Shown: positions 1,777 to 55,769 of the stretch, piece by piece
Layout of the letters: the number at the start of each line of letters is the position of its first letter
How positions within the stretch are numbered: the stretch's first letter is position 1
Source: a bacterium
GTDB lineage: Bacteria; Electryoneota; RPQS01
Length of the DNA: 64,000 nt
Direction of reading: 5' to 3'
NCBI GenBank assembly: GCA_023382385.1
Contig: JAHDVH010000002.1
Location: 820,219 to 884,218, forward strand
The notes under the pieces: model-generated
Seen by the model: only the letters and a program-made list of their open reading frames with translations
What the model was told of the DNA's origin: nothing
Database searches by the model: none
Translations under genes and position numbers: made by a program

Positions 1777-3339
1777 CTACTTCAAATGCAGCAGCTTTAC
1801 GCTTTGCGCGAAACCGCCGGCATTGAGTCGCGCAAAATAAAGACCGGTTGAGTGATTCCCGGCATTCCACATCACGGAATGCACACCGATGCTTTGCTGC
1901 TCGTCTACTAATGTTTCCACGAGTCGTCCCAGCACATCGTGGATATCCAAGCGAACGCGCTGCTCGCGGACCATTGCGTATTCAATAGTCACCGAGGAAT
2001 TGAAAGGATTGGGAGAAGCAAGAAGAGGAATGCCCGTTACCACTTCCGGCAGATCTGCTCCGATCCCCGCCGTTGTGTCCGTCAACCACGGAGCAAGTTG
2101 CACTGGTCCGGTTACCGTATCGCCTGCCCCATTCGGAGCTGCAAATTCATTGAACGGTCCGCTTGGATCACTCCAGTAATTGAATCGCGCATCGGTTTCC
2201 ACAGATCCGTCCAATGCATAGCCGCAATTCTCGAAGAAATTGTAGCGCATCGTATGCGGCATGGATTGCCATGGACCGCCGCTTCCGCCAATGGATGGGA
2301 GGCCATTTATGCTGTCGTGTACAAAGCGATTGTTCTCTATAAGTGCCGGATATCCGACGAACGGCCAAATATCATCAGCAGTTACGTGACCTGCACAATC
2401 AATGAAAGTGTTCCGTTGAATCCGAGCGCCATGAGTAACGGAAGCAGGGTAGTAGAGTAATCCGAGCGCGCCAGCGGCCATCAAACCGATACTTTGTCCC
2501 GTGCATCTGATGAAAACGTTGTCCGTGATACGAACGGAATCAGGAAGCTCTGAATCTATCCTGACAGCGTGGTTTCCGTAAGAACAATCAATAATCAAAT
2601 TATGCGAAAACTCAATCGACCCTCTGCCCAATGACACAGCAGTTTCGAAAGGGATTGTAACTGCCGGACCAAAAGTACAATTTGTGATTCTGTGCGAATC
2701 GCGGTTCGTGCCAAGCAGACTGTGACCATACACATCACTGAAATTGCACGAATCAATTTCAGATTTGCTCGCACTGACCAGACTGCGCGGGTCATGGTAC
2801 TCACCTCCCGAGAACTTGCACCTTTTCGCACGCAGCATGTTTCCGGCGCGTACGATTACCCCGGACAGTTCGACATTTCTGAAGACACAATCTTGCAAAT
2901 CTACTAATGCACCTATGCTGTCCTGCACTTGTAACAGCCACCGATAAGCAGAGTCTAATTGACAGTTCACAAGGGTTAGGTTGTCAGCCCAGCTCCTGAT
3001 ACAATAACGGTGTGAATTCATGAATCCGAAATTCTCGATGCGAACGTCTGAGAAGCGAGGCAATGCCAATGCGGCTGTCGTATCCGGCAGTTCAAGGTTG
3101 CTGGCATTCACAAATGGCCCACTCCAATTACCGGATATGGAATCAATTGCTCCAAGCATCGTGAAAGGTATTGCAGGCGCGATCAGCGCTTCCTCGTATG
3201 TCCCAAGTGCGACAAGGAGTGTATCGTTTACAAAGAGACTTTCAAGTCCCTCTTGAATGGTTCCAAATTGGGCTGGAACATATACTATCCGTGCAAACAG
3301 TGGTCCGCAAAGACATAATATGAACAGAAACTTTCCCAC
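1777..3339 (-). CDS. Right-handed beta-helix protein with T9SS sorting domain (cassette 1)
   Basis: A 520-aa exported protein. An N-terminal signal peptide (MGKFLFILCLCGPLFA) leads into a pectate-lyase-like parallel beta-helix with the family opening V-P-A-x-F-G-T-I-Q-E and G-T-Y-E-E. The helix runs to ~residue 425 and ends in the cap motif N-Y-W-S-D-P-S-G-P-F ... G-A-G-D-T ... P-W-L. Residues ~440-520 are a T9SS type A sorting domain with PNPFNSSVTIEYA. The start is GTG, only 7 nt after the stop of the small Cys-rich gene upstream and with no clear ribosome site, which suggests translational coupling. No polysaccharide-lyase catalytic set is evident, so the helix may be structural or binding rather than enzymatic. 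It belongs to the same family as the proteins at 15173, 48729 and 51248. Confidence 0.85.
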   Translation of the reverse strand: MGKFLFILCLCGPLFARIVYVPAQFGTIQEGLESLFVNDTLLVALGTYEEALIAPAIPFTMLGAIDSISGNWSGPFVNASNLELPDTTAALALPRFSDVRIENFGFMNSHRYCIRSWADNLTLVNCQLDSAYRWLLQVQDSIGALVDLQDCVFRNVELSGVIVRAGNMLRAKRCKFSGGEYHDPRSLVSASKSEIDSCNFSDVYGHSLLGTNRDSHRITNCTFGPAVTIPFETAVSLGRGSIEFSHNLIIDCSYGNHAVRIDSELPDSVRITDNVFIRCTGQSIGLMAAGALGLLYYPASVTHGARIQRNTFIDCAGHVTADDIWPFVGYPALIENNRFVHDSINGLPSIGGSGGPWQSMPHTMRYNFFENCGYALDGSVETDARFNYWSDPSGPFNEFAAPNGAGDTVTGPVQLAPWLTDTTAGIGADLPEVVTGIPLLASPNPFNSSVTIEYAMVREQRVRLDIHDVLGRLVETLVDEQQSIGVHSVMWNAGNHSTGLYFARLNAGGFAQSVKLLHLK

Positions 3340-3346
3340 AGTTCAG

Positions 3347-3844
3347 TTACGGACATCCCGTGCCAGTTGTTCCCCATTCGAGACACCCGTATGCCTTACA
3401 ATCCCCGGCAAGCTCCTCACAGCACGTCTCTTCGTCATTCTGCGTGCATGCGACAAGGCAGACATACATAATGTAATTGCCGGAAGAAATGCTGGTCGTA
3501 GTGGTCGTCCGATCACACACATTGCTTTCGCAATATTGCGTTCCAAGAGTGTTAACACTGGCAACCGGCGTTACTCCCGGCGGATTCGTATAAATACTCA
3601 CGCATGATGCACAATGTCCGCAATTCACATTGCCGCAATCAACCAGCGCCTTCAGTTTGTAAGTGTTTCCGCAATCCACATGAAACGAGTATGAAGTGCA
3701 ACCGACAAGAGTGTTACAGCCTGCCCCTGAACATTCGATATCCGTACCAATGACAAGTTTATTGCATCCCGGATCATCAGTTTGCGCTTTCACTATTGTG
3801 CAGAACAGCAACGGCAAAAGAGAAATTAACAGAACCTTCTTCAT
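3347..3844 (-). CDS. Small Cys-rich secreted protein (cassette 1)
   Basis: A 165-aa protein with a clear signal peptide (MKKVLLISLLPLLFCTIVKA, cleavage before QTDD). The mature part has about 18 cysteines, many in C-x2-C, C-x3-C or CC spacing, and a Thr-rich linker (TTTTTS). This fits an oxidised, disulfide-stabilised extracellular protein. No known family was recognised. A GGGGAGA ribosome site precedes the ATG. It is the first gene of a two-gene unit with the beta-helix protein at 1777-3339. Upstream on the minus strand, a TTGACA (complement of 3926-3931) is followed by a spacer containing a T7 run, but a convincing -10 box is missing. Confidence 0.75.
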   Translation of the reverse strand: MKKVLLISLLPLLFCTIVKAQTDDPGCNKLVIGTDIECSGAGCNTLVGCTSYSFHVDCGNTYKLKALVDCGNVNCGHCASCVSIYTNPPGVTPVASVNTLGTQYCESNVCDRTTTTTSISSGNYIMYVCLVACTQNDEETCCEELAGDCKAYGCLEWGTTGTGCP

Positions 3845-14715: not shown

Positions 14716-15123
14716 ATGCGGAACAAAAGACGTAAGTTCAGGGGGGGGCGGAAGTTAGCGCTGATATTGGTGCTCTTTCTTGCAGTTGGAGCTAAGGCGC
14801 TGAACGTGGTAAACACGCATACTTCATCCGGATCGCTATCAAAGAGCATTACGGTCACTACTGCCGGAACCTACAAACACGATGCACTTGCGCCTGCGCA
14901 AGGATATCTCTACAGCGAAATAGAGAACCGCACGGCGATTCCTTCTGATGACATTTACGTGGAAAATGGCGAGTGTGTCAGTCATTCCGTTTATCTGGAG
15001 CAAACGGACGAACGTACTTTTTACAATCTTAACTCAACTGCCACGATTACGAGTGGCACAGCAAAATCGCAGGTACGGTCACAGGAGATAGTAACAATCT
15101 GCCCATCGGGCGGCGGAAGTTAA
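14716..15123 (+). CDS. Small exported protein of cassette 2
   Basis: A 135-aa protein of unknown family. A very basic N-terminus (MRNKRRKFRGGRK) leads into a hydrophobic stretch (LALILVLFLAVGAKA), a signal peptide. The mature part is Ser/Thr-rich and beta-prone with only two cysteines (NGEC and TIC) that could pair. It ends in a Gly/Ser tail (CPSGGGS). AGAGGTG precedes the ATG. It sits before a beta-helix T9SS gene like three other small exported proteins here, but unlike them it is not cysteine-rich, so common ancestry is uncertain. Confidence 0.65.
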   Translation: MRNKRRKFRGGRKLALILVLFLAVGAKALNVVNTHTSSGSLSKSITVTTAGTYKHDALAPAQGYLYSEIENRTAIPSDDIYVENGECVSHSVYLEQTDERTFYNLNSTATITSGTAKSQVRSQEIVTICPSGGGS

Positions 15124-15134
15124 CCGCAAACTTA

Positions 15135-15164
15135 GAAGCGGTCGAGTGCAAGCTCGACCGCTTC
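15135..15164 (+). terminator. Hairpin directly before the beta-helix start (cassette 2)
   Basis: A perfect 12-bp stem (15135-15146 with 15153-15164) with a 6-nt loop, ending only 8 nt before the ATG at 15173. No T-tract follows. It sits where a ribosome site should be, so it could be an attenuator or a translation-limiting structure rather than a plain terminator. Confidence 0.55.
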
Positions 15165-15172
15165 CTTGCATT

Positions 15173-16807
15173 ATGAGACACCTTGTCTTGCTTCTCTTGT
15201 CGGCACAAGTTATGGCCGGCATTATCCCGATTACGCCTGCACAGAGCATTGAAGACGCGATGCTTTTCTCTGACACGGGCGACACGGTTTTGCTTGCAGA
15301 TGGTCTCTATTCAGAGTCCGTGTTTATCACAGGGAAGAAGATCACGGTTGGAAGCCAGTTCTTGCTGGATGGGGATACGGCTCACATTTCGGCGACTATT
15401 GTTGAACGTGATCTCGTACATCCTGATACGCAATCCTGCTTCATTATCGTGGACTGTCCGGACACGGTTCGATTAGTGGGGCTTACGATTCGGAACGGGT
15501 TGGGGACTATGTGGTCGGAAGAAAATGCGTACGCAGGAGGCTGCGTTTACAGTCTGCTCTCAAAGGTAATCATTGAGCATTGCACGATTCGCTCTGGAAC
15601 TGCCGCTTTCGGGGGAGGCATCTTCACGTTTAGGCGTGCCAATCAGTCGGTGAATAGCCTATCTCTGCGCAACTGCGTTGTCACGAATTGCGCGTCGGAT
15701 TACTGGGGCGGTGGGGTATATGCAAACCGATGCACCCTTGAAGTCCGTAACAGTACCGTTCGTAATTGTTTTAGTCTGTCGCAATCTGGAGGGGGCATCA
15801 GCGCACCCGCGCCTGCTGCTATCATTGAAAACTGTACTTTTGATAGTTGCGCAGGAATTGTTGGTGGTGTTGATCTTGGCGTCGGGAGCGCAATTGTACG
15901 AGGATGCACTTTCACTAACAATACAGCAACGCTAATTAGGTACTCTGCGCATTTGGGGGGCGGGGGAGGATTCCGGAGAATTGAGGGCAACTATTTCGGT
16001 CCCACTCTGTCAAATACGGTAGGAGTACGATTCTGCTGTGACACCGAAGACTCCGTTTTCTTTGTCGGCAACATATTGGAGTACAACGAAGCGACAGTGC
16101 GAACCGGAAGTCTATATTCTGCGGGAGTGGCGGGAGAGATATCGCACAACATTTTCAGGTGGAACATTGGATCGTTGGGCAGTCAGATTTATTGTTTTCA
16201 AGGCACAACTGTAGACATCCATCACAACGTGTTTGAAGGCAACATAAGCCTTGATCCGAGTTTTCCGAGCGTCTTGCTGACTGGACCCAACGCACGGCAG
16301 CAGTTTCATGACAACATTTTGGTGGGGAACAGCGGAGGGACAATCGACTATAACGATACGTATCACACCACAATTGACGCACGCAACAACTGGTGGGGTC
16401 ATGCGAGCGGACCTTATCATCCAACTCAGAATCCGGGCGGTCAGGGGGATACTCTGCTTTCGGACAGCGTGCTCTTTGATCCGTGGCTGATGTTTCCACC
16501 GGACACGTCTTCGTCGAGCGTAGGGCGGCCATTGCCAGTCTCGCCGGTAAACTGGGAACTACTGATTGTCTATCCTAACCCATTCAACAGCGAACTGTCA
16601 ATTTCCATAGCGGGGATCATGGGGCAAGGGTTTTCCTTGAAGCTCTATGATACGCTTGGCCGCGAGGTTGCCACGCTTCGCGAAGGAAGAGGGCACGGGA
16701 CAACACTCCACTACAGCGCACCTCCGACACTCGCTGCAGGTGTTTATTTTCTGTGCGCGGCGGAAGGCAACTTTGTTGAAACTCGAAAAGTCGTGTTCCT
16801 GAAGTGA
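15173..16807 (+). CDS. Right-handed beta-helix protein with T9SS sorting domain (cassette 2)
   Basis: A 544-aa exported protein with signal peptide MRHLVLLLLSAQVMAG. The beta-helix begins with I-T-P-A-Q-S-I-E-D-A and G-D-T-V-L-L-A-D-G-L-Y-S-E-S, with Asn- and Cys-rich rungs (for example C-V-V-T-N-C) to ~residue 430. The helix closes with N-N-W-W-G-H-A-S-G-P-Y ... N-P-G-G-Q-G-D-T ... P-W-L. The C-terminal ~80 residues form a T9SS domain with Y-P-N-P-F-N-S-E-L, ending K-V-V-F-L-K. ATG 15173 starts the signal peptide; no ribosome site is visible and a hairpin precedes it. The sorting domain is more divergent than in the other three cassettes. Confidence 0.83.
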   Translation: MRHLVLLLLSAQVMAGIIPITPAQSIEDAMLFSDTGDTVLLADGLYSESVFITGKKITVGSQFLLDGDTAHISATIVERDLVHPDTQSCFIIVDCPDTVRLVGLTIRNGLGTMWSEENAYAGGCVYSLLSKVIIEHCTIRSGTAAFGGGIFTFRRANQSVNSLSLRNCVVTNCASDYWGGGVYANRCTLEVRNSTVRNCFSLSQSGGGISAPAPAAIIENCTFDSCAGIVGGVDLGVGSAIVRGCTFTNNTATLIRYSAHLGGGGGFRRIEGNYFGPTLSNTVGVRFCCDTEDSVFFVGNILEYNEATVRTGSLYSAGVAGEISHNIFRWNIGSLGSQIYCFQGTTVDIHHNVFEGNISLDPSFPSVLLTGPNARQQFHDNILVGNSGGTIDYNDTYHTTIDARNNWWGHASGPYHPTQNPGGQGDTLLSDSVLFDPWLMFPPDTSSSSVGRPLPVSPVNWELLIVYPNPFNSELSISIAGIMGQGFSLKLYDTLGREVATLREGRGHGTTLHYSAPPTLAAGVYFLCAAEGNFVETRKVVFLK

Positions 16808-20557: not shown

Positions 20558-20866
20558 TTACATCGGCATCGGGGCGGCCTTCTTGGCCTTCTTGCGGCGC
20601 TTCGGAGCCTTCTTCGCCGTTGCTTTCTTGGTGGCCTTCTTGGCAGCTTTCTTCTTGGTGGCCTTCTTGGCGGCTTTCTTCTTGGTTGCTTTCTTCTTCG
20701 TCGCCTTCTTCGCGGCCTTCTTAGTTGCTTTCTTCTTGGTCGCTTTCTTCTTGGTCGCCTTCTTGGCCGTGGCCTTCTTGGCGGCTTTCTTCTTGGTGGC
20801 CTTCTTCTTGGCCGTGGCCTTCTTGGTGGCCTTCTTCTTGGTTGCCTTCTTCTTGGCAGGACTCAT
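20558..20866 (-). CDS. Histone H1-like Lys/Ala-rich DNA-binding protein
   Basis: A 102-aa protein made almost entirely of KKATKK/KKAAKK-type repeats, like the C-terminal domain of eukaryotic H1 and the bacterial HctB/AlgP-type nucleoid proteins. It ends [15 protein letters not shown]. The start at 20866 (MSPAKKK) has a good GAAGGAGA ribosome site; an upstream in-frame ATG at 20983 adds non-repetitive sequence and is rejected. It is expected to bind DNA non-specifically and condense or modulate it. The repetitive DNA makes length variation between strains likely. Confidence 0.85.
20590..20857. repeat. Lys/Ala codon repeat tract
   Basis: Imperfect tandem repeats of 12-18 nt built from GCC/TTC/TTG/GTG-type units encode KKATKK blocks of the H1-like protein. 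This is a coding repeat, not an intergenic array. Confidence 0.75.
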
Positions 20867-21394
20867 TCGGATTTCTCCTTCGCTGAATGATCGGGCAGAG
20901 ACTCGTTCGAGAACAGGATGTTTGATGTCCAGACAGGAAGCGGATGCGCTGCCCGAGATTCGCAGGCCTCCTGCTCTGTGCAACGCGGCAATCCGTGCGG
21001 CGAATTACCGAATTGTACCGGCGGCTTCTCGAAAGATGAGTCGCACAGTATCTATGATCGCGTCCCTGAAAGCGGGACGTTCATCGCGTTCCAGAACGGG
21101 TTGGATTCATTAGAATCAACGACCCGTGAGGGGAATCGTGACCATTTCGTGCCAAGCTATAGCAACAAATGGGCCGATTTTCAGCAAAGATAAGCAGATG
21201 ACCAGTGTTCAGCACCGATTCATGTACTGTTTGAGCCTGCTGTTGGCTCGGTCGAACACAACGTAAAACTTTTAGGTAAAAAGATTTACGAAGTCCATAA
21301 AGAACAGGGCCTCGATTTCCGATGAAGTCCGTGCGAAGTCAGAACTAAATTCGCAGAAACCTGCATGCTCATACTTTCGAGTTACTCTGAGCGG
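20867..21394. other. Intergenic region without recognisable gene
   Basis: About 530 nt between the H1-like gene start and the small gene ending at 21395, both minus strand. It contains a short hairpin (21061-21066 with 21074-21079) and a small palindrome GATTC-N4-GAATC (21104-21117). An open frame on the plus strand at 20918-21193 has no family resemblance or ribosome site. It should include the H1-like promoter, but no clear hexamers were found. Confidence 0.4.
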
Positions 21395-43400: not shown

Positions 43401-44733
43401 CGGGCCGTTCCCGCTCGGTTTCAACTTCGAGTACTTCGGTCAGACCTACAGCAGCATCAGAATGTGTTCGAACGGTTTTGCCTCCTTTACCAGCACGGCA
43501 GCGACTTTCACGAATGCCACAATTCCGACCGCTGCTGAGCCTAACACCGTGTTGTGCCCGTTCTGGGATGACTTGTATCCACCCACAGGCGGCGGTCAAT
43601 ACCTCTACTACTCGGATGCCGCGAACGGTCGCTTCATCATGAGCTGGATTAACGTACCGCACATTTCGAGTTCGACTGCGCGCTACACCTTCCAGATAGT
43701 ACTTGAGGCGGGCGGCGGAATCTACTTCAACTATCAATTGGTCGCCAGCGATGCTCCGGGCGTCACGAGTATGACGATTGGTGTCGAGAATGAAACAGGA
43801 ACCGACGGTATTCTGTTGAACTTCAACGGTGCCGGTCCGTTCACGCCGGCCAACCTGACGTCCGTGTCCTTCTGGGCAGGTCCGTCAGGAGAAATCAATG
43901 GTATCGTCCGCGAGTTTGGTTCCAACGCTCCTATTGCCAACTGTGAAGTCTGGATCGAAGAGATTTCCGAGTTCACGTTGACCGATGCACAAGGTAACTT
44001 TGTCATCTCGGTCGACCCGGGCACCTACACCGTCCGCGCTCACAAACTGGGTTACTGCGATCAGGTTGCTCAGAACGTCGTCGTTGAAGACGGTGGCGCA
44101 ACAACGCGTACCTTCAGCATGCGTCAACCTAACGCAACGTTTAACGTAAGCTCGCTGAACATTTTCGCGACCTTCGGTCAGAACGGCGTGTCCGGAATGG
44201 AAATTACGAACCCGACGCAGGGTGCCATGACTTGTGATGTCACCTATTCTATTACAAGTGATGAGAATTGGCTGGTCGCAACACCTGCACAAGGCACCAT
44301 CGCTGTCAATGGCACGCAATTCATTACCGTCACGGCCAACGTGGCCGCCTTCCCGGTTGGGGAGTATACGGCGAATTTGACGATTGATCACAACGACACC
44401 GGAAGCCCGTATGAAGTTCCGGTGACAGTGGTCGTCTCGCTGACTGCAAACGAGACGTCTGTGCTGCCGACCGAGTTTGCGTTGAACGCGAACTATCCGA
44501 ATCCCTTCAATCCGTCCACGTCGTTGAATTTCGATGTGCCGAATGAAGCTCACGTTCAATTGATTGTTTACAATGTGCGCGGTCAGGAAGTCGCTCGTCC
44601 GCTCGACGCGACGGTTCAGGCCGGCCGCCACACGGTTACCTTCAATGCTGACAACCTGCCGACGGGTATGTATCTTGTGAAGATGACTGCGCCGAATTTT
44701 GATGCGGTGCAGAAGATTGTCCTGCTGAAGTAA
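37438..44733 (+). CDS. Giant secreted multidomain protein with T9SS sorting domain
   Basis: A 2431-aa exported protein. Signal peptide 1-27 (ends TTAFA). A beta module beginning D/Y-E-W-I-D-I occurs three times (~91, ~1168, ~1967); each has C-S-N-G-F/W-x-S-F and P-F-W-D-D-L. Between them are FnIII domains, a MAM/jelly-roll-like domain (~372-545) and two carboxypeptidase-regulatory-like domains (~550, ~1350). A further regulatory-like domain (~2155-2235) and an Ig-like domain precede the T9SS domain (~2342-2431; N-Y-P-N-P-F-N-P-S-T, ending K-I-V-L-L-K). Residues ~550-1350 and ~1350-2150 are tandem copies. A large surface or released adhesin or matrix protein is inferred; no protease motif was found. 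Confidence 0.85.
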   Translation: MNHRNTIWKGLLACAVLMAMVTTAFAVTEADVVRLKNKLTSGETLTKAESLLALEAEEVFGSKILGDSPFQSPRQPRQPLDDYVFETVAYEWIDITGNGTPAGITGDDQNVGPFNLGFTFSFYEQSYTSVRMCSNGWASFTSTTAEYFNGSIPSTATPNGALYPFWDDLYPPSGGTFFYYADAANQRFIMSWINVPHIGSTTELYSFQIVLYANGNIRYNYQTVFVGGTYGNTTCTVGIENAAGTDALQVCYDGNGTLPTSQTSFLISQPDGVPNPPTNVTATPSGNTVVFTWVDPTHDTNGNPLTPSGIQIWMGPVGTGTLLATVAPGVQTYTATNLQAGNYTFNLRAAAGQYFSGAVTVNAVVGNPSYFSDFEADNGELVSSGGWEWGAPSGVGPAGAYSGQNCWGTIIAGNYANSACYYLDIDQELTVSSDAATLEFRMWLNAETSWDGINIKVSTDGGQNWVIVQDVAPVYSQATTVGNANCHAQEPGWSGNQSAAGWRLMVVQLGQFAGTTPIIRFSFGSDASVQYPGVYIDDVILWGFGEPEFATVSGTVSLDGGAGTITSVTVSANGIGNPTTNPAANGSYTLTNVLTGNRRISGALAGYNTARQDIVLTAGGATNVNLTLVRLNPPVPTNLVGSANNQTGVVTLDWDNSTDPLVDDYPVYRRLQGDQDWVLQGTPTTSSFEQTLPGPGIYQFAVAARDIHVSTPVVSDLSPSINVLYGNLPVTSIGWSGNYDDRIRLNWLEPGIAEGQEIFYDDGTSETWFRVATPNGPNDYFCVRMTPPADATYPLMLYAANIYMEREDPIPLVALCRPNASNTGADLNNPLFSWTNIGADATPGWLFAETDGSVFLSAPGDFYIVIQFPPGGTGPGCGSDNSAPDLRSYWSNTYPTWNLWTSNDWMMRAWVGGPPPQGLAGGDGGIELVQIDGRGGYAEDRIPSRMTATLPPLDESRATKVEYVARAAYDSQSGFENPLDQWFAPYSRAPQVLLRVDRRGGNALDELLSYNIYRNAVQVGNVLAPTTTYMDIGVVENTPYQYYVTAVYDNGESGPSPTVTAMCNMPPAAPTNLTAEPQGSTQMVLSWVAPTTNGDATPLVDLAGYNVYRSGVLAGSTAAGVTTFTDTPPNPQFFYTWTVKAIDEVPNESAPSNGATAAVLSPWEIVDYEWIDIVGVGTVIVNGDDINSGMMPLPWNFEFYGTNYTQFSVCSNGFLSFTGTSASLGNGAIPSTAEPNGAIYPFWDDLNPGAGGDVYMYNDVNNERMIIAWVDVPHYGNNNLYTFQVILEPPTSITLQYMSMSDISSGTVGVENAAGTEAIMLFNNGTSPFGWSPTNQSAVAFWAPEPTYGPISGTVTLDGGTGNVTQVLVRASGRGTPTTNPNAQGQYTLAQVATGNRTVTGSLTGYNTTTVAVPNHTEGGTTGVNITLRRANPPVPTGLVGSVNSATGVVNLDWDNSTDPLVDDYPVYRRLQGEQNWVLQGTPTQSQFTQTLTASGIYQYAVAARDNNASTPVVSDLTNPVTLLYGELPPTGLAANGNYDDRIVLSWFAPGTPPEFELSYDDGTNEVQGIAWWGGSPTFGWMATKFQATAGNVTVTRIKPFWSADAQVPQNVPVEVAVFADNAGVPTFTPLGVTNFLKNGVGAFQDVELTTPVTIPSPVFWVGVRQIGANALGLGGDNDTPFINNTFKYSFDGTAWTAFEPGLLTIPMLRCYAIGQFGGLMELSPAPISVSAEDLAVRTEVVKSNQNVTVTTHVDEMSMTTSCEVTPLAELQARGARAVMPHFPTIAPRISDERGGRTPRSLDDVTNYRVYRGGTQIAQVPATVLTYTDLNRIENTPYQYYVTALYDNGQESGPTLTVTAMCNMAPNAPSGLVANPLGTTQMALAWVAPNTNADGTPLVDLAGFRIYRDGNQVGTTAPGVTTYIDSPPDNQTFYTWTIRAIDEVPNVSNPSNSAIGAIVSPWEVADYEWIDITGNGTPAGITGDDQTVGPFPLGFNFEYFGQTYSSIRMCSNGFASFTSTAATFTNATIPTAAEPNTVLCPFWDDLYPPTGGGQYLYYSDAANGRFIMSWINVPHISSSTARYTFQIVLEAGGGIYFNYQLVASDAPGVTSMTIGVENETGTDGILLNFNGAGPFTPANLTSVSFWAGPSGEINGIVREFGSNAPIANCEVWIEEISEFTLTDAQGNFVISVDPGTYTVRAHKLGYCDQVAQNVVVEDGGATTRTFSMRQPNATFNVSSLNIFATFGQNGVSGMEITNPTQGAMTCDVTYSITSDENWLVATPAQGTIAVNGTQFITVTANVAAFPVGEYTANLTIDHNDTGSPYEVPVTVVVSLTANETSVLPTEFALNANYPNPFNPSTSLNFDVPNEAHVQLIVYNVRGQEVARPLDATVQAGRHTVTFNADNLPTGMYLVKMTAPNFDAVQKIVLLK
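39087..43870 (+). repeat. Internal 2.4-kb tandem duplication in the giant gene
   Basis: Matching landmarks recur at a constant offset of about 2.4 kb: the regulatory-like domain start at 39087 and 41488, the FnIII stretch encoding D-W-D-N-S-T-D-P-L-V-D-D-Y at 39402 and 41799, and the D-Y-E-W-I-D-I module at ~40935 and ~43331. The copies differ by many substitutions and local indels, so the duplication is not recent. Confidence 0.8.
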
Positions 44734-48185: not shown

Positions 48186-48216
48186 TTGACAATTGTTTTT
48201 TTTTTTTTGATATAAT
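48186..48216 (+). promoter_or_regulatory. Cassette 3 promoter with T13 tract in the spacer
   Basis: Perfect TTGACA (48186-48191) and perfect TATAAT (48211-48216), separated by 19 bp that include 13 consecutive T (48196-48208). Loss of two T would give the optimal 17-bp spacing, so slippage could alter promoter strength. Confidence 0.72.
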
Positions 48217-48273: not shown

Positions 48274-48717
48274 ATGAAGAAGTCACTGTATGTGCTAATG
48301 CCCTTGATTATGGCTACTACACTGCTAACAATTCGGCAACTTAATGCGTGCACTGCCCCCACTGTGTCAGAGCAGAAAGCGTCTTTTACATGCGATGGAA
48401 ACTGCCGATTTGACGCAATTGAAGCGTTCTGGACTTGTACGGCGAATAGCGGAAGTTACAAGGTTCATGTTGGAGTTTCTGAAGCAGGCGCCGGTGGCAC
48501 TTTTGTCGTGAAACTGTGGGATACGACTCCTCATCCGGATAATGAGATTCTATCGCAAACCTTTAGTGCAACAGGCAACTGCGCGAGCGGCGACTTTTCC
48601 GTCAATCTAATCAATGGACATGAATACCGGCTGTATGTTGACGGAGCAAGTGGAATTGGTTGCAATGAAGGCGAGCAGGCCTGGGCAAAGATGTGCTACA
48701 CTTGCCCCGCAAACTGA
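48274..48717 (+). CDS. Small Cys-containing exported protein (cassette 3)
   Basis: A 147-aa protein with signal peptide MKKSLYVLMPLIMATTLL up to RQLNA. The mature part has 8 Cys, a Gly-rich centre and beta strands (K-V-H-V-G-V, F-V-V-K-L-W-D-T), like a small beta-sandwich (C-terminal pattern Y-R-L-Y-V-D-G-A). L-N-A-C could be a poor lipobox. A strong AAGGAGG ribosome site is present. It lies 11 nt before the beta-helix gene. No known family was recognised. Confidence 0.75.
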   Translation: MKKSLYVLMPLIMATTLLTIRQLNACTAPTVSEQKASFTCDGNCRFDAIEAFWTCTANSGSYKVHVGVSEAGAGGTFVVKLWDTTPHPDNEILSQTFSATGNCASGDFSVNLINGHEYRLYVDGASGIGCNEGEQAWAKMCYTCPAN

Positions 48718-48728
48718 AAGATCAAGAG

Positions 48729-50363
48729 ATGCGTTTCTTAAGCGGCATAGCGGTTATTGCTATACTCTTAAGTGAAAGCTTACACTCCGAGGGAGCGATT
48801 ATCAGAGTTCCTGAAGATGCCGTAACTATACAGGAGGCTTTCGACCAATCAAGCATAAGCGACACAATCCTGCTATCAAATACCTATTACCATGAAACTG
48901 TTCGTGTTCCTCTTGGCCTTCGAACACTCGCAAGTAACTTCATCTATTCGAACGATCAGAACGATATAAGCACGACAATCATCCAACCCGGTGACACGGT
49001 GACTTCCGATACGTCTTGTTGCCTTGTGCTGATGCAGGGTTGCAGTCTGGAAGTTATCGGAATCAGCTTCAAGTTTGGGAAAGGCGTTCGCCAATCAAAC
49101 GGCCGCTATGAGGGAGGCGCGATTTACGCTGAGTCATCTTTTCTTCGCATCTCCGACTGCTCATTCAGCAATTGTTTCGCAGATTTCGGAATCTGTATCT
49201 GGATACGTGGAGGTTCAGCGTTATCCGTCTATCGCACCCGTTTCACGACAAATGGCAGGATTACAGGAAGTTCTTATCCCCAAGCCTGCATACGAGCGAC
49301 GGACACCCAACTCACTGTTGGCAATTGTCGTTTTGATAACAATTTAGTAGTTAGCGCACCAGCAATTGTCTTGACTTTCGGATCGGCGCAGATCCTCGAT
49401 TCTGTTGTGGATTCAAATCTAACAACCAATTCATTTCTCCCGGCCATTACGGCGGATGACGCCGATTTGGTTGTCCGTGGAACCATTTTCAGGGAGAATG
49501 TAAACCTACATGGATTCGCGAACACAGCAATCAGCTCGGATACACGCAATGTTGTCATTGAAGGGTGTTCATTCTACTCGAACAGAGGTGGAAGTGTGCT
49601 CTCGCTTTGGGGAGACTCCGCACGTGTAGAGAACTGTCTGTTTGAGTCGAATGTTGCATCCATAAGGGGCACGGCCGGAATTTCGTTTGGTTACGGCGCC
49701 TACCAGGTATCCAATTGCACTTTTCGCGACAACACCGCGGAGGGTTGGGCGGTGCTGACGACCAATGGGACTACAACTGTAGCTGATTGCGAGTTCACAG
49801 GCAATGTATCGCAGTTAGACTCTGTCGGGTTAATGACAAGCCTCTACGATTCAATCATCCTTAGAGACTGCTCATTTCAAGGCAATACACCGTGCGCATT
49901 CTCGACAAATCAATGGTTTGAAGGCTTCATTGATGCGCGAAACTGCTATTGGGGTGCGGAGAGCGGTCCGTTTCATAGCCTTCTTAATCCCGATGGAGAG
50001 GGTGATACGATTCTCGGTAATGATGTCTTGTTTGTCCCTTGGCTCGAGAGTCAACCCAATGTGGTTGAAGAGCGAATAACTCCCGCAGTTAGTGGATTCG
50101 AGATCAATTCTGTCTATCCCAATCCCTTCAACTCTTCTGTAACCATTGAATATGCTTTGACTCGCGAGCAGGTCGTTCTGCTCGAAGTCTTCGACGTTCT
50201 GGGCCGCAAGGTCGAAACACTGCTTCACACCACACAGGCTCCCGGCGTGCATTCCGTGCTCTGGAATGCGGAGCATCAAGCGACAGGCCTCTACCTCGCC
50301 CGACTCTCTTCATCCATCACGGTTCCAACGTCTCAATCCGTCAAACTTCTCCTGCTAAAGTAA
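48729..50363 (+). CDS. Right-handed beta-helix protein with T9SS sorting domain (cassette 3)
   Basis: A 544-aa exported protein; signal peptide MRFLSGIAVIAILLSESLHS. The beta-helix opens with R-V-P-E-D-A-V-T-I-Q-E-A and carries many short rungs with N/S and Cys, ending in N-C-Y-W-G-A-E-S-G-P-F ... G-E-G-D-T ... P-W-L. The T9SS domain (~460-544) has PNPFNSSVTIEYALTREQ and ends K-L-L-L-L-K. Its coding DNA is almost identical to that of the cassette 4 protein. ATG 48729 starts the signal peptide. Confidence 0.85.
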   Translation: MRFLSGIAVIAILLSESLHSEGAIIRVPEDAVTIQEAFDQSSISDTILLSNTYYHETVRVPLGLRTLASNFIYSNDQNDISTTIIQPGDTVTSDTSCCLVLMQGCSLEVIGISFKFGKGVRQSNGRYEGGAIYAESSFLRISDCSFSNCFADFGICIWIRGGSALSVYRTRFTTNGRITGSSYPQACIRATDTQLTVGNCRFDNNLVVSAPAIVLTFGSAQILDSVVDSNLTTNSFLPAITADDADLVVRGTIFRENVNLHGFANTAISSDTRNVVIEGCSFYSNRGGSVLSLWGDSARVENCLFESNVASIRGTAGISFGYGAYQVSNCTFRDNTAEGWAVLTTNGTTTVADCEFTGNVSQLDSVGLMTSLYDSIILRDCSFQGNTPCAFSTNQWFEGFIDARNCYWGAESGPFHSLLNPDGEGDTILGNDVLFVPWLESQPNVVEERITPAVSGFEINSVYPNPFNSSVTIEYALTREQVVLLEVFDVLGRKVETLLHTTQAPGVHSVLWNAEHQATGLYLARLSSSITVPTSQSVKLLLLK

Positions 50364-50390
50364 ACTGTAGTTCAAACTGTCTTCAAAGAA

Positions 50391-50420
50391 AAGCCCCGCT
50401 TGTCGAAACAAGCGGGGCTT
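50391..50420. terminator. Terminator after cassette 3
   Basis: A perfect 13-bp stem (50391-50403 with 50408-50420), CGAA loop. The identical element recurs at 52889-52918. Confidence 0.85.
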
Positions 50421-50441
50421 CACATGCGTTCTTAGCGGAGA

Positions 50442-50692
50442 TTACGAATTGACCGCAACCACCACATAGTAGAACCTGTCTCCGATATTCAGCACACCGG
50501 GATCGGTGTATGACGTAGGGTGAGGCAAGAATTGGCGTTCCGGCAGTATCCAGAGGGCGCGTGTAATCATGCAAGTCCTGCGGATCCGTGACCAACGCCA
50601 GCAAGCCCGGCAAACCCTGACCGCCCACGGTATCAAGACTCGAAACCTCGATCCAGAATTCGCCTTGCAGTCTCTTCAGTGCAGCAACACTG
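50442..50692 (-). pseudogene. Remnant of the 3' end of the gene at 52940-55558
   Basis: On the minus strand this encodes, in one frame, S-V-A-A-L-K-R-L-Q-G-E-F-W-I-E-V and the following ~45 residues up to I-L-A-S-P. After an internal deletion of about 68 codons and a frameshift, it encodes T-S-Y-T-D-P-G-V-L-N and the C-terminal end V-V-V-A-V-N-S in another frame. It lacks the first ~700 codons and cannot encode a functional protein. It is a by-product of the duplication around cassette 4. Confidence 0.88.
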
Positions 50693-50759
50693 GACTCATG
50701 CCAGCTTTCTGATTTCAGAGTACTTCTGCTGTGAATTTCTTCATGATTGTGAAATGGTC

Positions 50760-50788
50760 TTGACATTCTCCGTTTACTTTGATATGCT
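50760..50788 (+). promoter_or_regulatory. Promoter of cassette 4
   Basis: TTGACA (50760-50765), a 17-bp spacer, TATGCT (50783-50788), 57 nt before the ATG at 50845. It lies just beyond the end of the duplicated segment, so cassette 4 carries its own promoter. Confidence 0.65.
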
Positions 50789-50844
50789 TTTAGCGACAGC
50801 GAACTCCGCGAATCAATCGATAATCAAGCTTTTTAGGGGCTGAA

Positions 50845-51246
50845 ATGCAGGGACTTACATTGGTACTGGCAATTTGCTCATTCCTTGCAACGAGCAACGC
50901 ACAAACATTCTGCGTTACAGCCACAGGTACGTGCTGCGTTGAAGACTACACGATAGTGTCCGATACGACGATCGTTCAGATTAACGATCTTGCTATGACA
51001 TTTGATGCAGGAAGCGCAAATCATCGTCTGCACATTGTGCTTCAAATTGACGGCTTTGATCAGGAATCGTGGACAGTCTGCGGATGCGGCGAGCGAGAAG
51101 TACAAGTTGACCCAATTGGTCCGAATCACGTGGTTTCTCTGAAAGCTCGATGTACAGGCTGTGACTCCCCTTGCAGTGCTGGTGAAGGCAAGGCCTCCGT
51201 TTATGCGCCTGCCTCAAGCGTCACTTGCAAACTTCCGTGCAATTAG
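50845..51246 (+). CDS. Small Cys-rich secreted protein (cassette 4)
   Basis: A 133-aa protein with signal peptide MQGLTLVLAICSFLATSNA. The mature part has 10 Cys (T-C-C, V-C-G-C-G, C-T-G-C-D-S-P-C, a C-K-L-P-C end) and beta strands in between, suggesting a compact disulfide-bonded domain. AGGGG precedes the ATG. The next gene starts 1 nt after its stop. No family was recognised; it shares position and Cys-richness, but little obvious sequence, with the small proteins at 3347 and 48274. Confidence 0.75.
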   Translation: MQGLTLVLAICSFLATSNAQTFCVTATGTCCVEDYTIVSDTTIVQINDLAMTFDAGSANHRLHIVLQIDGFDQESWTVCGCGEREVQVDPIGPNHVVSLKARCTGCDSPCSAGEGKASVYAPASSVTCKLPCN

Positions 51247-51247
51247 C

Positions 51248-52861
51248 ATGTGTAGGATTATGCTTCTTGCAGTCCTCGTGCTCGCAGGAACAGGAACAGC
51301 CGAGTTGCGCGTCGTGCCCAGGGATTACTCTACTATTCAATTGGCAGTTGATCTGACTGCGGCGGGTGACACAGTACTTGTTCTCCGAGGCACGTATACA
51401 GAATCAGTGGACGTGCCGTGCCGAAGCATCGTTATCGCAAGTGAGTTTCTGATTACCGGTGACTCAAGCGACATTGCTGCCTGTATCTGGCGTGCCCATT
51501 CCGGGCAGCGCCACGTACTGGCAACAGAGTGTGCATTTGAAGTCAGCATAGACATCCTCGGCTTCACGTTTTCCGGAGAATTGACGGGAGGCGGACTGGA
51601 GATGATCAGGAATCAGGTTGAAGTCGCTGACTGTATATTTGATAGTTGTGTCGCCACGAATGGTGCAGCCATCAGAGCTGCAAAGTCCAATCTACAGATC
51701 GAACGATGCACGTTCAGTCACTGCTGGGCTGCCTCGAACGGCGCGATTGCTTATCTTGACAGCGTGAGATGCAACTTGGTCGATTGTGTTGTCTATGGAT
51801 CCGGCGTTGGTAACCCGACCCGCGCGTTGTTTCGATTCCGACATCGTTCTGCTTATCTGAATGACCTGGTGATCAGAAACTGCGTCCTGCCGGACGAGCG
51901 GGTGCTGATTGATCTCTCCGGCACCGTTGATACTGTTTGGGCTTGCTCTTGCTCCATTGACAGCAACACCTTTGCCTATGGCTTCGTTCAAAGCGATGGA
52001 CTTTGTCATGTCTTGACTCTGGAGCGGTGTAACTTCAGCACCAACACAATCCGGCGGAGTATTCTGCATGACGTGGTCATGGAAGTCGGTGAGGTTTCTG
52101 TAACCGAATCCATCTTTGAGCGAAACAACGCTGCACCGAATTTTGGTGGCGTATCCGCGATGTTTGTAAGCGGCGGGCGCTATGCCGACTTCCGGTTTTG
52201 GAGAAATCTCTTTCACGAAAATCATTGGAACGACGAGACCTGTCTCAATATCGATTTGGTGGGCGCTGAACGTGTCAGTCGTAATTACTTCATAGGTAAC
52301 TCCTCAGTGTCCGTGGTCTTCGTCCCTTGCGTCACTTACGTGAATGGCAATGCAGAAGGCTCATTCATCCATAACGTGTTTCAAGGGAATCTTATGTCCT
52401 CAATGGAGGCACACACAAGCCCGCCGCCTGCGCGCGCTATTGAAAACTTTTGGGGCGACGCTTCCGGACCATTCAATGCAGAACAGAATCCCGCGGGACT
52501 CGGCGACACAGTCGGCACAAACATAGATTTCATCCCGTGGTCAATAGACACGTTGTTCTTGTCTGCGAATTCTTCTTCTGGACTTCCGACCGCCTTTGCG
52601 ATGGGCTATCCCTATCCCAATCCGTTCAATTCTTCTGTAACCATTGAATATGCCTTGACGCGCGAGCAGGTCGTTCTGCTCGAAGTCTTCGACGTTCTGG
52701 GCCGCAAGGTCGAAACACTGCTTCACACCACACAGGCTCCCGGCGTGTATGCCGTGCTCTGGAATGCGGAGCACCAAGCGACAGGCTTCTACTTCGCCCG
52801 ACTCTCTTCATCCGTCACGGCTCAAACATCTCAATCCGTCAAACTTCTCTTGCTAAAGTAA
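51248..52861 (+). CDS. Right-handed beta-helix protein with T9SS sorting domain (cassette 4)
   Basis: A 537-aa exported protein, signal peptide MCRIMLLAVLVLAGTGTA. The beta-helix opens V-P-R-D-Y-S-T-I-Q-L-A-V and G-D-T-V-L-V-L-R-G-T-Y-T-E-S, and ends N-F-W-G-D-A-S-G-P-F ... G-L-G-D-T ... P-W. The T9SS domain has PNPFNSSVTIEYALTREQ and ends K-L-L-L-L-K. The helix part differs strongly from cassette 3 while the sorting-domain DNA is nearly identical. ATG 51248 lies 1 nt after the previous stop without its own ribosome site, implying coupling. Confidence 0.85.
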   Translation: MCRIMLLAVLVLAGTGTAELRVVPRDYSTIQLAVDLTAAGDTVLVLRGTYTESVDVPCRSIVIASEFLITGDSSDIAACIWRAHSGQRHVLATECAFEVSIDILGFTFSGELTGGGLEMIRNQVEVADCIFDSCVATNGAAIRAAKSNLQIERCTFSHCWAASNGAIAYLDSVRCNLVDCVVYGSGVGNPTRALFRFRHRSAYLNDLVIRNCVLPDERVLIDLSGTVDTVWACSCSIDSNTFAYGFVQSDGLCHVLTLERCNFSTNTIRRSILHDVVMEVGEVSVTESIFERNNAAPNFGGVSAMFVSGGRYADFRFWRNLFHENHWNDETCLNIDLVGAERVSRNYFIGNSSVSVVFVPCVTYVNGNAEGSFIHNVFQGNLMSSMEAHTSPPPARAIENFWGDASGPFNAEQNPAGLGDTVGTNIDFIPWSIDTLFLSANSSSGLPTAFAMGYPYPNPFNSSVTIEYALTREQVVLLEVFDVLGRKVETLLHTTQAPGVYAVLWNAEHQATGFYFARLSSSVTAQTSQSVKLLLLK

Positions 52862-53402
52862 ACTGTAGTTCAAACACATTGCAAAGAAAAGCCCCGCTTG
52901 TCGAAACAAGCGGGGCTTCACATGCGTTCTTAGTGAAGATTACGAATTGACCGCAACCACCACGTAGTAGAACCTGTCTCCGACATTCAGTACACCGGGA
53001 TCGGTGTATGACGTAGTCGGAATCGGTACCGGCGTCAGCAACGTCTGCAGCGGCGTATTGAAATCATTCGAACGATACACCAAATATCCGTCAGCACGAT
53101 TTGTTGCGCTCCAGCGCAGAATTGCGTCGTTGGTAACTCCGTCACGCAGAATTGTGAGGTCGATAACGGGATCGGGCCATGTTGTGGGGACGATTGTCGT
53201 TTCCACACAGTAACGGCTCGGCGAAGCAAGAATTGGCGTTCCCGCAATATCCAGACGGCGCGTGTAACTATGCAAGTCCGTCGTGTCCTGCGGATCCGTG
53301 ACCAGCGCCAGCAAGCCCGGCAAACCCTGACCGCCCACTGTATCCAGACTCGAGACCTCGATCCAGAATTCGCCTTGCAGTCTCTTCAGTGCGGCAACAC
53401 TG
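52612..53402. repeat. Segmental duplication, right copy
   Basis: Near-identical partner of 50114-50692. It spans the sorting-domain coding end of cassette 4, the terminator and the intact 3' end of the minus-strand gene at 52940. Confidence 0.9.
52889..52918. terminator. Bidirectional terminator after cassette 4
   Basis: A perfect 13-bp stem (52889-52901 with 52906-52918), CGAA loop, between the convergent genes ending at 52861 and 52940. It is identical to the hairpin at 50391-50420. Confidence 0.85.
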
Positions 53403-55558
53403 CTTAAGTCAACCTGCCACCAGCGATTCAACAACGAATCGCCGCCAAACGGCGAGACAGTCTCATTGGTGTCGATCTCTTCTTCGTAGACATACAGAAG
53501 TTCACCTGGAGTTCTGTTGTCAGGTCCTGGTCCATAGAACTTGAGCTGGCAGCGTGCCGTTCCGTCCGGCAGAGAGTTAATGTCTTCCGGATCCCAGTTC
53601 CACATGACCTGCACCTTGTTGATATCCACGGTATCCGCGTCTGCGGCCGGAACACCGTCCGCCAGCGGTGTGTAACGCACAAGGCGCGGATTGGTTAGCA
53701 CCACGCTGTAATCACGCATGTGATACGCCAGCTCGTACGTTCCGGCAGGCTGTACATCTACAGCCATGTTATAAAGGGCGTTCAGCGGAACGTTGATCGG
53801 CGAACGTGTCGTGTCATTGGTGCGATCCTGCTCACCCGGATAGACCGAAGCCACACGAAGGCGATACGAACCGACAGCATCCGGAATCCACGTGACGGGA
53901 ATAGTGACAAACTCGTTCGTGGCCAGCGTAGCCGTCGTCTGCTTCAGCGAGTCGGTGCCCTGATTCGTGCCGTTGGGACGTGTATACAGTTGGCGATAGC
54001 GCAACGCGTTGCCGATATTGCTGCTGCCTTCATTCACATACTCGAATGACCACGTCCGTGACAGGCCGACGGTCACCGGGAACGGGACCACCATCTTGCG
54101 CGTGGCCGCGTCAATCGCGAAAGCGCGCGTGGCAACGAGGTGAATGTAGTCAACGTGCAATCCGCTGCCGATTCCACCGTCATCGTTGCAGTCGGTTTCC
54201 AGGCGGAACTGCAGCAGCACCGTTTGCTCTCCCCACCGCGTGAGATCAATGTCAACCTGTGTGCCGCCGGTGGTCAAACCGCGGCTGCGGCGGACCCATC
54301 CGTTCAGCGAGTTGCCCGCATCCGGATGTGTCTCGCTGTTGTTGTACGCATAGTCGTAAACCACACGTGTCCAGGTTGCTCCGTTATCTGTGGAAATATA
54401 GATGGAGTAAAGATCATCCAGAGAGCTGTCGTTGTTTCCATCAGCATCCGGCAAATCGCACCAGACATAATATGCGAGCACCAACTTCTGGAATGCGTTG
54501 GGATCTGCGCCCGGTCGTGCCGTGTCCGGCAATACGATCGGCGGAGATGTCAGCGCGGTATTCAACCCGGCGATGCCGCGATGCTCGGCATTCCACGACC
54601 ACACTTGATCGGGGCAGCCGACCATTCCTGTTGGTGCGGTAGAATCCTCATACACCCATGTATTGCCGATTCCGCCGCCCTCCACGGCATAGGTCGTCCA
54701 GCCGGTCGCATCGCCGTCGTTCGACAATAAGTTGCCGCCGCTGTGTGATACGCGAATTGAATCCACGATCAGGCCGTAGTAGGATGAATCATCCACCGCG
54801 CTGAAACCCGGATCGGAATAGAAGCTGTAACGGAACTTCACATTCGACTGTCCTGCGTAGGCGTCGAGATTCGCGGTAATCACAGTATATGCATTCGCGT
54901 TGGCCGTGCCGCCCCATGCCGGAATGTTCGGCCCAAGGCACCACTGCTCGCCGAACGCGTAACAGCTCTGGCCTGTGAAAGCAAGCGACAAACCAGTGGT
55001 AACGACTGACCACGTTGCGCCGCCGTCCGTGGAAATCTGCAGATTCCAACCGTCCCACATGTCGTATCCCGCCGGCTCTCCGCCCGGATCCTCAATCTTC
55101 CAACGGGCTTTGAACGCCAGCGTAATCGGCGCGCTTGCGCCGCTGAGATTGACAACCGGTGATTCGAGGTGCTGTTGCCATGCGTTGTCGTAGCCGCCGG
55201 GGGCAACGAGGTTATCCGTCATCGCGGCATTGCCAACCCACCATGCGGGCGCATTGGGATCGCCGATCGGCACGTTGTCTACATGCCAGTAGGGGGGTTG
55301 CGAAGCCGTTAAGTCACTTGACGTCCATACTGGCCCTGCTTCAAATGTCTGCAATACAATCGTGGTATCAAAAGCGTCCAGAGAATTTCCGGGACGACGA
55401 GCGAACAATTCCTGAATGGGAATCTCAATTTCCTCCCAGCCGTCGTTCCACGAAACGGCGGGAGAGTTGGCAGGCGTGACCATGAGATTCGTGCCGGCAA
55501 ATGCAATTGCCGCGATTCCTGCGATCAGCGCCAGACGAAATCCAATTTTGCTGACCAT
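52940..55558 (-). CDS. Large secreted MAM/jelly-roll and FnIII protein without T9SS domain
   Basis: An 872-aa exported protein. The signal peptide (MVSKIGFRLALIAGIAAIAFA) is supported by CGGAG upstream; longer in-frame starts are rejected. Two or three MAM/jelly-roll-like domains (~75-290, ~300-490) carry the D-G-G-A-T-W-S and S-T-D-N-G-A-T-W-T motifs seen in secreted protease accessory domains. A middle CARDB-like region (~490-600) and a C-terminal FnIII follow. The chain ends after F-Y-Y-V-V-V-A-V-N-S with no sorting domain, like the protein at 147. Its 3' end is duplicated as a remnant at 50442-50692. Confidence 0.82.
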   Translation of the reverse strand: MVSKIGFRLALIAGIAAIAFAGTNLMVTPANSPAVSWNDGWEEIEIPIQELFARRPGNSLDAFDTTIVLQTFEAGPVWTSSDLTASQPPYWHVDNVPIGDPNAPAWWVGNAAMTDNLVAPGGYDNAWQQHLESPVVNLSGASAPITLAFKARWKIEDPGGEPAGYDMWDGWNLQISTDGGATWSVVTTGLSLAFTGQSCYAFGEQWCLGPNIPAWGGTANANAYTVITANLDAYAGQSNVKFRYSFYSDPGFSAVDDSSYYGLIVDSIRVSHSGGNLLSNDGDATGWTTYAVEGGGIGNTWVYEDSTAPTGMVGCPDQVWSWNAEHRGIAGLNTALTSPPIVLPDTARPGADPNAFQKLVLAYYVWCDLPDADGNNDSSLDDLYSIYISTDNGATWTRVVYDYAYNNSETHPDAGNSLNGWVRRSRGLTTGGTQVDIDLTRWGEQTVLLQFRLETDCNDDGGIGSGLHVDYIHLVATRAFAIDAATRKMVVPFPVTVGLSRTWSFEYVNEGSSNIGNALRYRQLYTRPNGTNQGTDSLKQTTATLATNEFVTIPVTWIPDAVGSYRLRVASVYPGEQDRTNDTTRSPINVPLNALYNMAVDVQPAGTYELAYHMRDYSVVLTNPRLVRYTPLADGVPAADADTVDINKVQVMWNWDPEDINSLPDGTARCQLKFYGPGPDNRTPGELLYVYEEEIDTNETVSPFGGDSLLNRWWQVDLSSVAALKRLQGEFWIEVSSLDTVGGQGLPGLLALVTDPQDTTDLHSYTRRLDIAGTPILASPSRYCVETTIVPTTWPDPVIDLTILRDGVTNDAILRWSATNRADGYLVYRSNDFNTPLQTLLTPVPIPTTSYTDPGVLNVGDRFYYVVVAVNS

Positions 55559-55626
55559 ACTTTGCTCCGGAATAGGTTGTTTATCCTTAGGTTGGGACCC
55601 GGTTACCCCAAGGTGACCGGAAACGA

Positions 55627-55661
55627 AAACGGGCACAAGAGGCGTTCTCTTCTGCCCGTTT
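55627..55661 (-). terminator. Hairpin terminator after the 595-aa gene
   Basis: A 9-bp arm (55627-55635 with 55653-55661), one mismatch, then a 5-bp inner stem (55637-55641 with 55647-55651). It lies downstream of the minus-strand gene stop at 55770. Confidence 0.65.
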
Positions 55662-55769
55662 CTGGAGGTTCGGAAGACGTTGGGCGGACAGACCACATCG
55701 CTGCGATCTGCCCGCCACAATTTAGAGTTTACGGCTTTACAACTGCCAGAAAGACGGGCGAAGTAGAAA

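What the first reader, a model, noticed from the sequence alone, without database searches (positions are those of the whole stretch)
48274..52861. Repeated two-gene module: small exported protein plus beta-helix T9SS protein (four copies in the window)
Four loci (3844-1777 minus, 14716-16807, 48274-50363, 50845-52861) have the same design. A short signal-peptide protein (133-165 aa) is followed within 7, 49, 11 and 1 nt by a 520-544 aa right-handed beta-helix protein with a conserved helix cap (N-x-W-x-x-x-S-G-P ... G-D-T ... P-W) and a T9SS sorting domain. Three small partners are rich in cysteine (about 18, 8 and 10); the fourth has two. The partners differ greatly in sequence while gene order and coupling are kept, as expected for a diversifying partner/effector set such as toxin-carrier, adhesin-cap or secreted ligand pairs. 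I know of no described system with this design; function is inferred only from architecture.
Basis: partly seen in the sequence, partly recalled or inferred. Interest (0 to 1): 0.78.

Follow-up and report, generated by a model that had tools for sequence, protein, structure and literature searches.

The report
Paired small-protein and beta-helix surface modules
In an uncultured bacterial lineage, a family of surface-displayed beta-helix proteins is almost always encoded together with a small exported partner that has duplicated and diverged in step with it, which points to an undescribed two-part cell-surface complex.

Summary
Confirmed, and larger than reported. The four window modules are real. 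The window's genome holds 15 capped beta-helix genes (one a pseudogene) and all 15 have a small-protein gene directly upstream. Among 110 other type IX (T9SS) cargo genes only 4 have any such ORF (Fisher p about 3e-15, computed as 14/14 against 4/110). Across the GTDB family my count is 64 of 69; outside it, 0 of 18 fetched loci. The small proteins form four types (A-D; the window holds one of each), with no Pfam, NCBIfam or PADLOC match. Models of A and C are beta-sandwiches resembling CBM6/PPC jelly rolls. Partners diverge in step with the beta-helix bodies (r 0.84-0.93; nearest body has the same partner type in 49/49), whereas the T9SS tails are decoupled and near-identical in tandem copies. 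Type-C operons carry a strong hairpin between the genes, as in operons that set subunit ratios. The 'conserved helix cap' is generic across phyla. Most likely: a heteromeric surface binding complex, a T9SS-anchored beta-helix scaffold plus a small jelly-roll subunit. Interaction, partner export and ligand are inferred. Nothing supports a toxin. Small A also precedes two other T9SS genes and stands alone in one genome.

The parts
3347..3844 (-). Module 1 small exported protein, type A (165 aa, 19 Cys)
   Evidence: 67% identical to a protein of the same-genus genome G001; AF2 model pLDDT 84.9
1777..3339 (-). Module 1 beta-helix protein with T9SS CTD (520 aa)
   Evidence: PF13229 45 bits, TIGR04183 26 bits
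14716..15123 (+). Module 2 small exported protein, type C (135 aa, 2 Cys)
   Evidence: AF2 model pLDDT 84.6
15124..15172 (+). Module 2 intergenic stem-loop (13 bp stem) between small gene and beta-helix gene
   Evidence: MFE -36.9 kcal/mol, z -4.5; equivalent hairpins in most type-C junctions
15173..16807 (+). Module 2 beta-helix protein with T9SS CTD (544 aa)
48186..48216 (+). Promoter-like TTGACA-19 nt-TATAAT upstream of module 3
   Evidence: read by eye; the 19-nt spacer lies outside the scan, so unscored
48274..48717 (+). Module 3 small exported protein, type D (147 aa, 8 Cys), with ribosome-binding site AAGGAGG
48729..50363 (+). Module 3 beta-helix protein with T9SS CTD (544 aa)
   Evidence: PF13229 59 bits, TIGR04183 28.6 bits
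50114..50413 (+). Module 3 T9SS-tail DNA, 94% identical to the module 4 tail (52612-52911) although the bodies are unrelated at DNA level
   Evidence: family D2
50383..50766 (-). Decayed duplicate of the 3' end of the convergent 926-aa gene (52940-55720), left between modules 3 and 4
   Evidence: (D5 96%, D8 84%)
50760..50788 (+). Promoter-like TTGACA-17-TATGCT (extended -10) upstream of module 4
   Evidence: the number of promoter-like sites in the region is near the shuffled expectation
50845..51246 (+). Module 4 small exported protein, type B (133 aa, 11 Cys)
51248..52861 (+). Module 4 beta-helix protein with T9SS CTD (537 aa)
   Evidence: TIGR04183 27 bits; aligns to the beta-helix profile over model positions 2-427 (the protein was one row of that profile)

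Best explanation
Each module is an operon for a two-subunit cell-surface complex. The large protein is a non-catalytic right-handed beta-helix with its own Sec signal, exported and anchored through its C-terminal T9SS domain. The small protein, with its own Sec signal and no T9SS signal, is a beta-sandwich (CBM/PPC-like jelly roll, often disulfide-rich) that pairs with the beta-helix, most likely in the periplasm before or during export, and is displayed with it as a ligand-binding or capping subunit. Translation of closely spaced or overlapping genes (A, B, D) or an intergenic stem-loop (type C) sets the ratio. The lineage uses the set as a repertoire of surface binding proteins: modules duplicate as units, body and partner diverge together, and the T9SS tails are homogenised or exchanged separately. 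Shown: pairing, close spacing, co-divergence, tail decoupling, predicted folds of types A and C, presence of a SprA-type translocon. Inferred: co-transcription, physical interaction, route of the small protein across the outer membrane, and the ligand.
For: Pairing: 15/15 capped beta-helix genes in the genome (one a pseudogene) against 4/110 other T9SS genes; 64/69 in the GTDB family (hand count); 0/18 outside. Orientation is invariant (small first) and gaps mostly -40 to +75 nt, many overlapping. Co-divergence: small vs body r 0.90 in 12 pairs, 0.88 in the genome, 0.93 in G001, 0.84 over 54 pairs; nearest body carries the same small type 49/49. Body vs tail r only 0.19 in the genome. Small types: AF2 beta-sandwiches matching CBM6, PPC/collagen-binding and subtilase jelly-roll domains; A-B and A-D profile homology about 96% probability. 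Only one charged body residue is conserved at 90% or more across 47 beta-helix proteins, an N-terminal Asp; the other two such residues lie in the linker and tail. SprA translocon present, E 2.7e-38. Type-C stem-loops with z down to -5.4; such stem-loops set subunit ratios of heteromultimeric complexes in Clostridium (PMC4423207).
Against: Small A also sits upstream of two T9SS proteins that are not beta-helices (an S8 subtilase and an Omp28-like protein) and stands alone as four tandem genes plus one more in G008. Five of 69 beta-helix genes lack a partner (G004 x3, G009, G001). Co-divergence of adjacent genes is also expected from duplication of the gene pair without any contact. Foldseek TM-scores are modest (0.3-0.6). 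No case of a CTD-less subunit exported with a T9SS cargo was found in the papers searched.
Confidence: 0.5

Rival explanations
1. The small protein is a dedicated periplasmic folding or capping chaperone for its beta-helix and is not displayed with it.
For: Upstream position and tight coupling let it be made first; type-matched co-divergence 49/49; lack of any T9SS signal on the small protein.
Against: A chaperone would be expected to be conserved and substoichiometric or generic; instead there are four very different types with up to 25 cysteines, and type-C hairpins suggest that the small product may be made in excess. Beta-helix genes in other lineages manage without it.
Confidence: 0.2
2. 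Two independent secreted proteins are simply co-regulated and co-duplicated; there is no physical complex.
For: Small A occurs with other T9SS cargo and alone; some beta-helix genes have no partner.
Against: The association survives many duplications and rearrangements and holds in 64/69 cases with fixed order, while the tails of the same proteins are decoupled.
Confidence: 0.2
3. The module is a polysaccharide-degrading pair: the beta-helix is a lyase or esterase and the small protein its detached carbohydrate-binding module.
For: Beta-helix profile matches PL6 alginate lyases and pectinesterases in the PDB (E 2e-12 to 1e-3); small-protein models resemble CBM6.
Against: No catalytic-type charged residues are conserved along the helix across the family; the matches may reflect the common helix turns only.
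Confidence: 0.07
4. Toxin-carrier or toxin-immunity module, as suggested by the first reader.
For: Fast divergence, tandem arrays, duplication through a shared 3' end.
Against: No toxin, immunity or defence family; the small protein is a signal-peptide-bearing beta-sandwich; the variable part is the body plus partner, with no separable toxin tip.
Confidence: 0.03

Closest known systems
T9SS type A cargo proteins (TIGR04183 / PF18962), e.g. gingipains and RemA/RemZ adhesins
   Same: Sec signal plus C-terminal type A sorting domain; large repertoire per genome (127 hits)
   Different: Nearly every capped beta-helix cargo here has a small CTD-less partner gene upstream, not described in the T9SS papers searched
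Right-handed parallel beta-helix proteins (PF13229 Beta_helix, NosD-like; PL6 lyases)
   Same: Same repeat fold and the generic W-G-x-x-S-G-P/G-D/P-W end motif
   Different: No conserved catalytic residues; paired with a co-diverging small protein only in this lineage, as far as tested
PPC domains and CBM6/CBM35 jelly rolls
   Same: Predicted beta-sandwich, matched by Foldseek
   Different: No sequence match to any Pfam family; encoded as a separate, often cysteine-rich protein rather than as a domain of the enzyme
Selective RNA processing and stabilisation operons (cip-cel, Clostridium cellulolyticum; PMC4423207)
   Same: Strong intergenic stem-loop after the first cistron (type C)
   Different: Unrelated genes and lineage; processing not shown

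Membership tests
T9SS type A cargo (large protein) | N-terminal Sec signal and C-terminal TIGR04183/PF18962 domain above cut-off | tested here: met
   for all four; signal peptides by a hydrophobicity scan only
T9SS type A cargo (large protein) | T9SS translocon encoded in the same genome | tested here: met
   SprA_N PF14349 E 2.7e-38, 2108-aa frame
T9SS type A cargo (small protein) | C-terminal sorting domain | tested here: not met
   no family match at E up to 1
Right-handed beta-helix (PF13229) | profile match above cut-off | tested here: met
   three of four above cut-off; the fourth aligns over the whole module profile, of which it is a row
PPC / CBM6 domains (small protein) | sequence-profile match to a Pfam PPC or CBM family | tested here: not met
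   none in 28 type A and 9 type C members
PPC / CBM6 domains (small protein) | jelly-roll beta-sandwich fold | tested here: inconclusive
   AF2 pLDDT 85; best matches E 1.6e-4 and 4.3e-4, TM 0.3-0.6; types B and D not modelled
Polysaccharide lyase PL6 | conserved catalytic residues in the helix | tested here: not met
   no charged residue in the central helix conserved at 90% over 47 members; PL6 residues not mapped one by one
Polymorphic toxin / immunity systems | toxin domain with adjacent immunity gene | tested here: not met
   no toxin, immunity or defence family
SRPS operon | stable intergenic stem-loop after the first cistron | tested here: met
   type C only: 9 of the 10 family junctions folded have a long stem (8 of them with z below -2), plus the G025 junction
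SRPS operon | RNA cleavage at the stem-loop and skewed transcript ratio | not testable with these tools
   no RNA data

The most novel reading that the evidence does not exclude
A heteromeric T9SS cargo system: a CTD-less, often cysteine-rich jelly-roll subunit is carried across the outer membrane on a beta-helix that bears the export signal, and the lineage diversifies a repertoire of such matched pairs while exchanging a common T9SS tail, much as other bacteria diversify adhesins.
Probability: 0.3. Interest if true: 0.8.

Novelty: new variant of a known kind. Interest (0 to 1): 0.6.

Why it matters
T9SS is thought to recognise single polypeptides by their own CTD. A lineage that has built about 15 to 25 matched small/large pairs per genome gives a natural test of whether folded heteromeric complexes can be exported by one partner's CTD, and of how a surface-protein repertoire can diversify as co-evolving pairs while its export tail is shared and exchanged. 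It also adds several uncharacterised exported protein families to a phylum without well-studied cultured members.

Tried and rejected
(1) Split-gene artefact: rejected, both products have their own start and signal-peptide-like N-terminus. (2) Small protein as lipoprotein: residues before the first Cys do not look like a lipobox in the sequences seen (read; not run through a predictor). (3) Cap motif as a module signature: rejected, generic across phyla. (4) Domain fusion as proof of contact: longer beta-helix proteins of other families (G015, G020, G027) have extra domains, but none looks like the small protein. (5) Inter-chain disulfide idea: beta-helix cysteine number does not follow small-protein cysteine number. 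(6) PDB sequence search with small A gave only zinc-finger hits at E above 0.03, taken as cysteine-composition noise. (7) genome-contig scan with small A found nothing; with the type-C beta-helix it named mostly distant relatives. (9) A first version of the pair table gave G002:C2 the wrong beta-helix; corrected before the figures.
Full report
WHAT IS THERE. The four pairs exist as described. Each has a 133-165 aa ORF with a hydrophobic N-terminus (in module 3 with a good ribosome-binding site, AAGGAGG), and a 520-544 aa beta-helix gene 7, 49, 11 or 1 nt downstream. Every large protein has a T9SS type A sorting domain above cut-off. No small protein matches Pfam, NCBIfam or PADLOC. The genome (G000, 2.9 Mb, 7 contigs) has 127 T9SS sorting-domain hits and a SprA-type translocon.

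IS IT MORE THAN CHANCE. I took the stretches around 124 of the 127 T9SS genes and looked upstream of each. Fourteen encode the capped 512-579 aa beta-helix. Thirteen have a small ORF directly upstream (twelve; C1:841713 by the profile and). The fourteenth (C2:420189) has a type C copy with a broken N-terminal frame. A fifteenth pair at C2:490-492k is a pseudogene in both members. Of the 110 other T9SS genes four have any ORF of this size with a signal-like N-terminus at that distance, and two of those four are themselves small type A. Fisher's test on 14/14 against 4/110 gives p about 3e-15, and 13/14 gives 2e-13.

THE SMALL PROTEINS. They fall into four main types plus a few unplaced. Type A has 15-25 Cys, B mostly 9-13 (6 in the G005 member), C 2-6, D 4-8. 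The window has one of each: A at 3347-3844, C at 14716-15123, D at 48274-48717, B at 50845-51246. Profile comparison links A with B and A with D at about 96% probability; C stays apart by sequence (signal peptides were included, so these values are somewhat generous). AlphaFold2 models of A (28 sequences) and C (9 sequences) both have mean pLDDT 85 and eight strands. Foldseek matches both to jelly-roll beta-sandwiches: CBM6 and CBM BT0996-C, collagenase PPC and collagen-binding domains (TM up to 0.60) for A; the jelly-roll domain of the Tk-SP subtilase (TM 0.51) and CBMs for C. These are fold resemblances; no sequence membership was found.

DISTRIBUTION. Small A occurs in 6 of 11 genomes of the same GTDB family and in none of the other 28 genomes held for the phylum; C in 7 and B in 3 family genomes, none elsewhere. 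For the type D protein every match with E below 0.001 lies directly upstream of a beta-helix gene. Counting all assessable capped beta-helix genes in the family by hand gives 64 of 69 with a small partner, a few of them with broken frames. The five without are three in G004, one in G009 and one in G001. Related beta-helix genes occur widely outside, and in 18 assessable loci from other lineages none has such an ORF. Two distant members of the phylum, G025 and G019, have possible pairs.

CO-DIVERGENCE. Similarity among small proteins follows similarity among beta-helix bodies: Pearson r 0.90 for 12 pairs in the genome; 0.88 for 13, 0.93 in G001 (19 pairs) and 0.84 over 54 pairs, all beyond every permutation. 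The nearest body always has the same small type (49/49, chance 0.32). The T9SS tails behave differently: body-tail r is 0.19 in G000 (not significant), 0.50 over all pairs, and in neighbouring tandem modules tails are near-identical while bodies differ (G001:C19, G001:C5, window modules 3 and 4). In the window the module 3 and 4 tails share 300 nt at 94%, followed by a decayed duplicate of the end of the convergent 926-aa gene. I read this as the trace of a duplication or unequal exchange through the shared 3' end that put two very different body/partner cassettes side by side. Because genes duplicated together also diverge together, the correlation shows inheritance as a unit; by itself it does not prove contact.

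LOCUS COMPARISON. In the same-genus genome G001 genes near the window modules are 66-83% identical in protein sequence, whereas the module 2 beta-helix is 45% and the module 1 pair is 57% (beta-helix) and 67% (small). At the XRE-cupin regulator preceding modules 3 and 4, G001 has neither module. So modules tend to evolve faster than their surroundings and come and go. The type D module is missing from G001 but present in four other family genomes.

OPERON FEATURES. In type C junctions a long G+C-rich stem-loop with unrelated sequence from genome to genome sits between the small stop codon and the beta-helix start, in 9 of 10 family junctions folded and in the distant G025 pair; z-scores are mostly -2.4 to -5.4, one is -1.3. 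Two type-C junctions with short gaps (G000:C2:420189, G001:C10:157277) have none. Most lack a T-run. Such stem-loops set subunit ratios of heteromultimeric complexes in Clostridium (PMC4423207). This supports co-transcription and controlled stoichiometry, but no RNA data exist here.

MECHANISM. Best reading: a two-subunit surface complex with a T9SS-anchored beta-helix scaffold and a jelly-roll ligand-binding or capping subunit (confidence 0.5 for the whole statement; physical pairing alone perhaps 0.7). The beta-helix family shows no conserved catalytic set, although its profile matches PL6 lyases and pectinesterases, which share the fold. How a protein without a T9SS signal would reach the surface is open; riding on its partner is the most interesting possibility and was not found in the T9SS papers searched (absence from an open-access library is weak evidence).

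LIMITS. Signal peptides were judged by a simple hydrophobicity scan. Small types B and D were not modelled.

Noticed in passing
L209 (G008:C5:732547-734678) and L210 (G008:C10:433051): Four tandem type-A small genes without any T9SS gene directly downstream, next to prephenate-dehydrogenase-like genes, and one more solitary copy: the small family can exist without the beta-helix.
   Followed up: partly
G000:C5:72059-75645 (L371) and G000:C2:607653-610169 (L372): Type-A small gene directly upstream of an S8 subtilase and of an Omp28-like protein, both with T9SS tails: partner switch away from the beta-helix.
   Followed up: partly
window 50383-50766: Decayed copy of the 3' end of the 926-aa gene at 52940-55720, a scar of the duplication that placed modules 3 and 4 in tandem.
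   Followed up: yes
G000:C2:490248-491992: A type-A module in decay: a stop codon in both the small gene and the beta-helix gene.
   Followed up: no
window 20558-20983 (-): Lysine/alanine-rich tandem-repeat ORF (repeat spacing 12 and 15 nt), possibly a histone H1-like protein.
   Followed up: no
window 37438-44733: 2431-aa T9SS protein with internal repeats about 2.4 kb apart (families D3, D4, D7, D9).
   Followed up: no
G009:C176:4481-4568: A type-C-like beta-helix gene with a strong intergenic hairpin but an unrelated 189-aa ORF upstream where the small gene is expected.
   Followed up: partly
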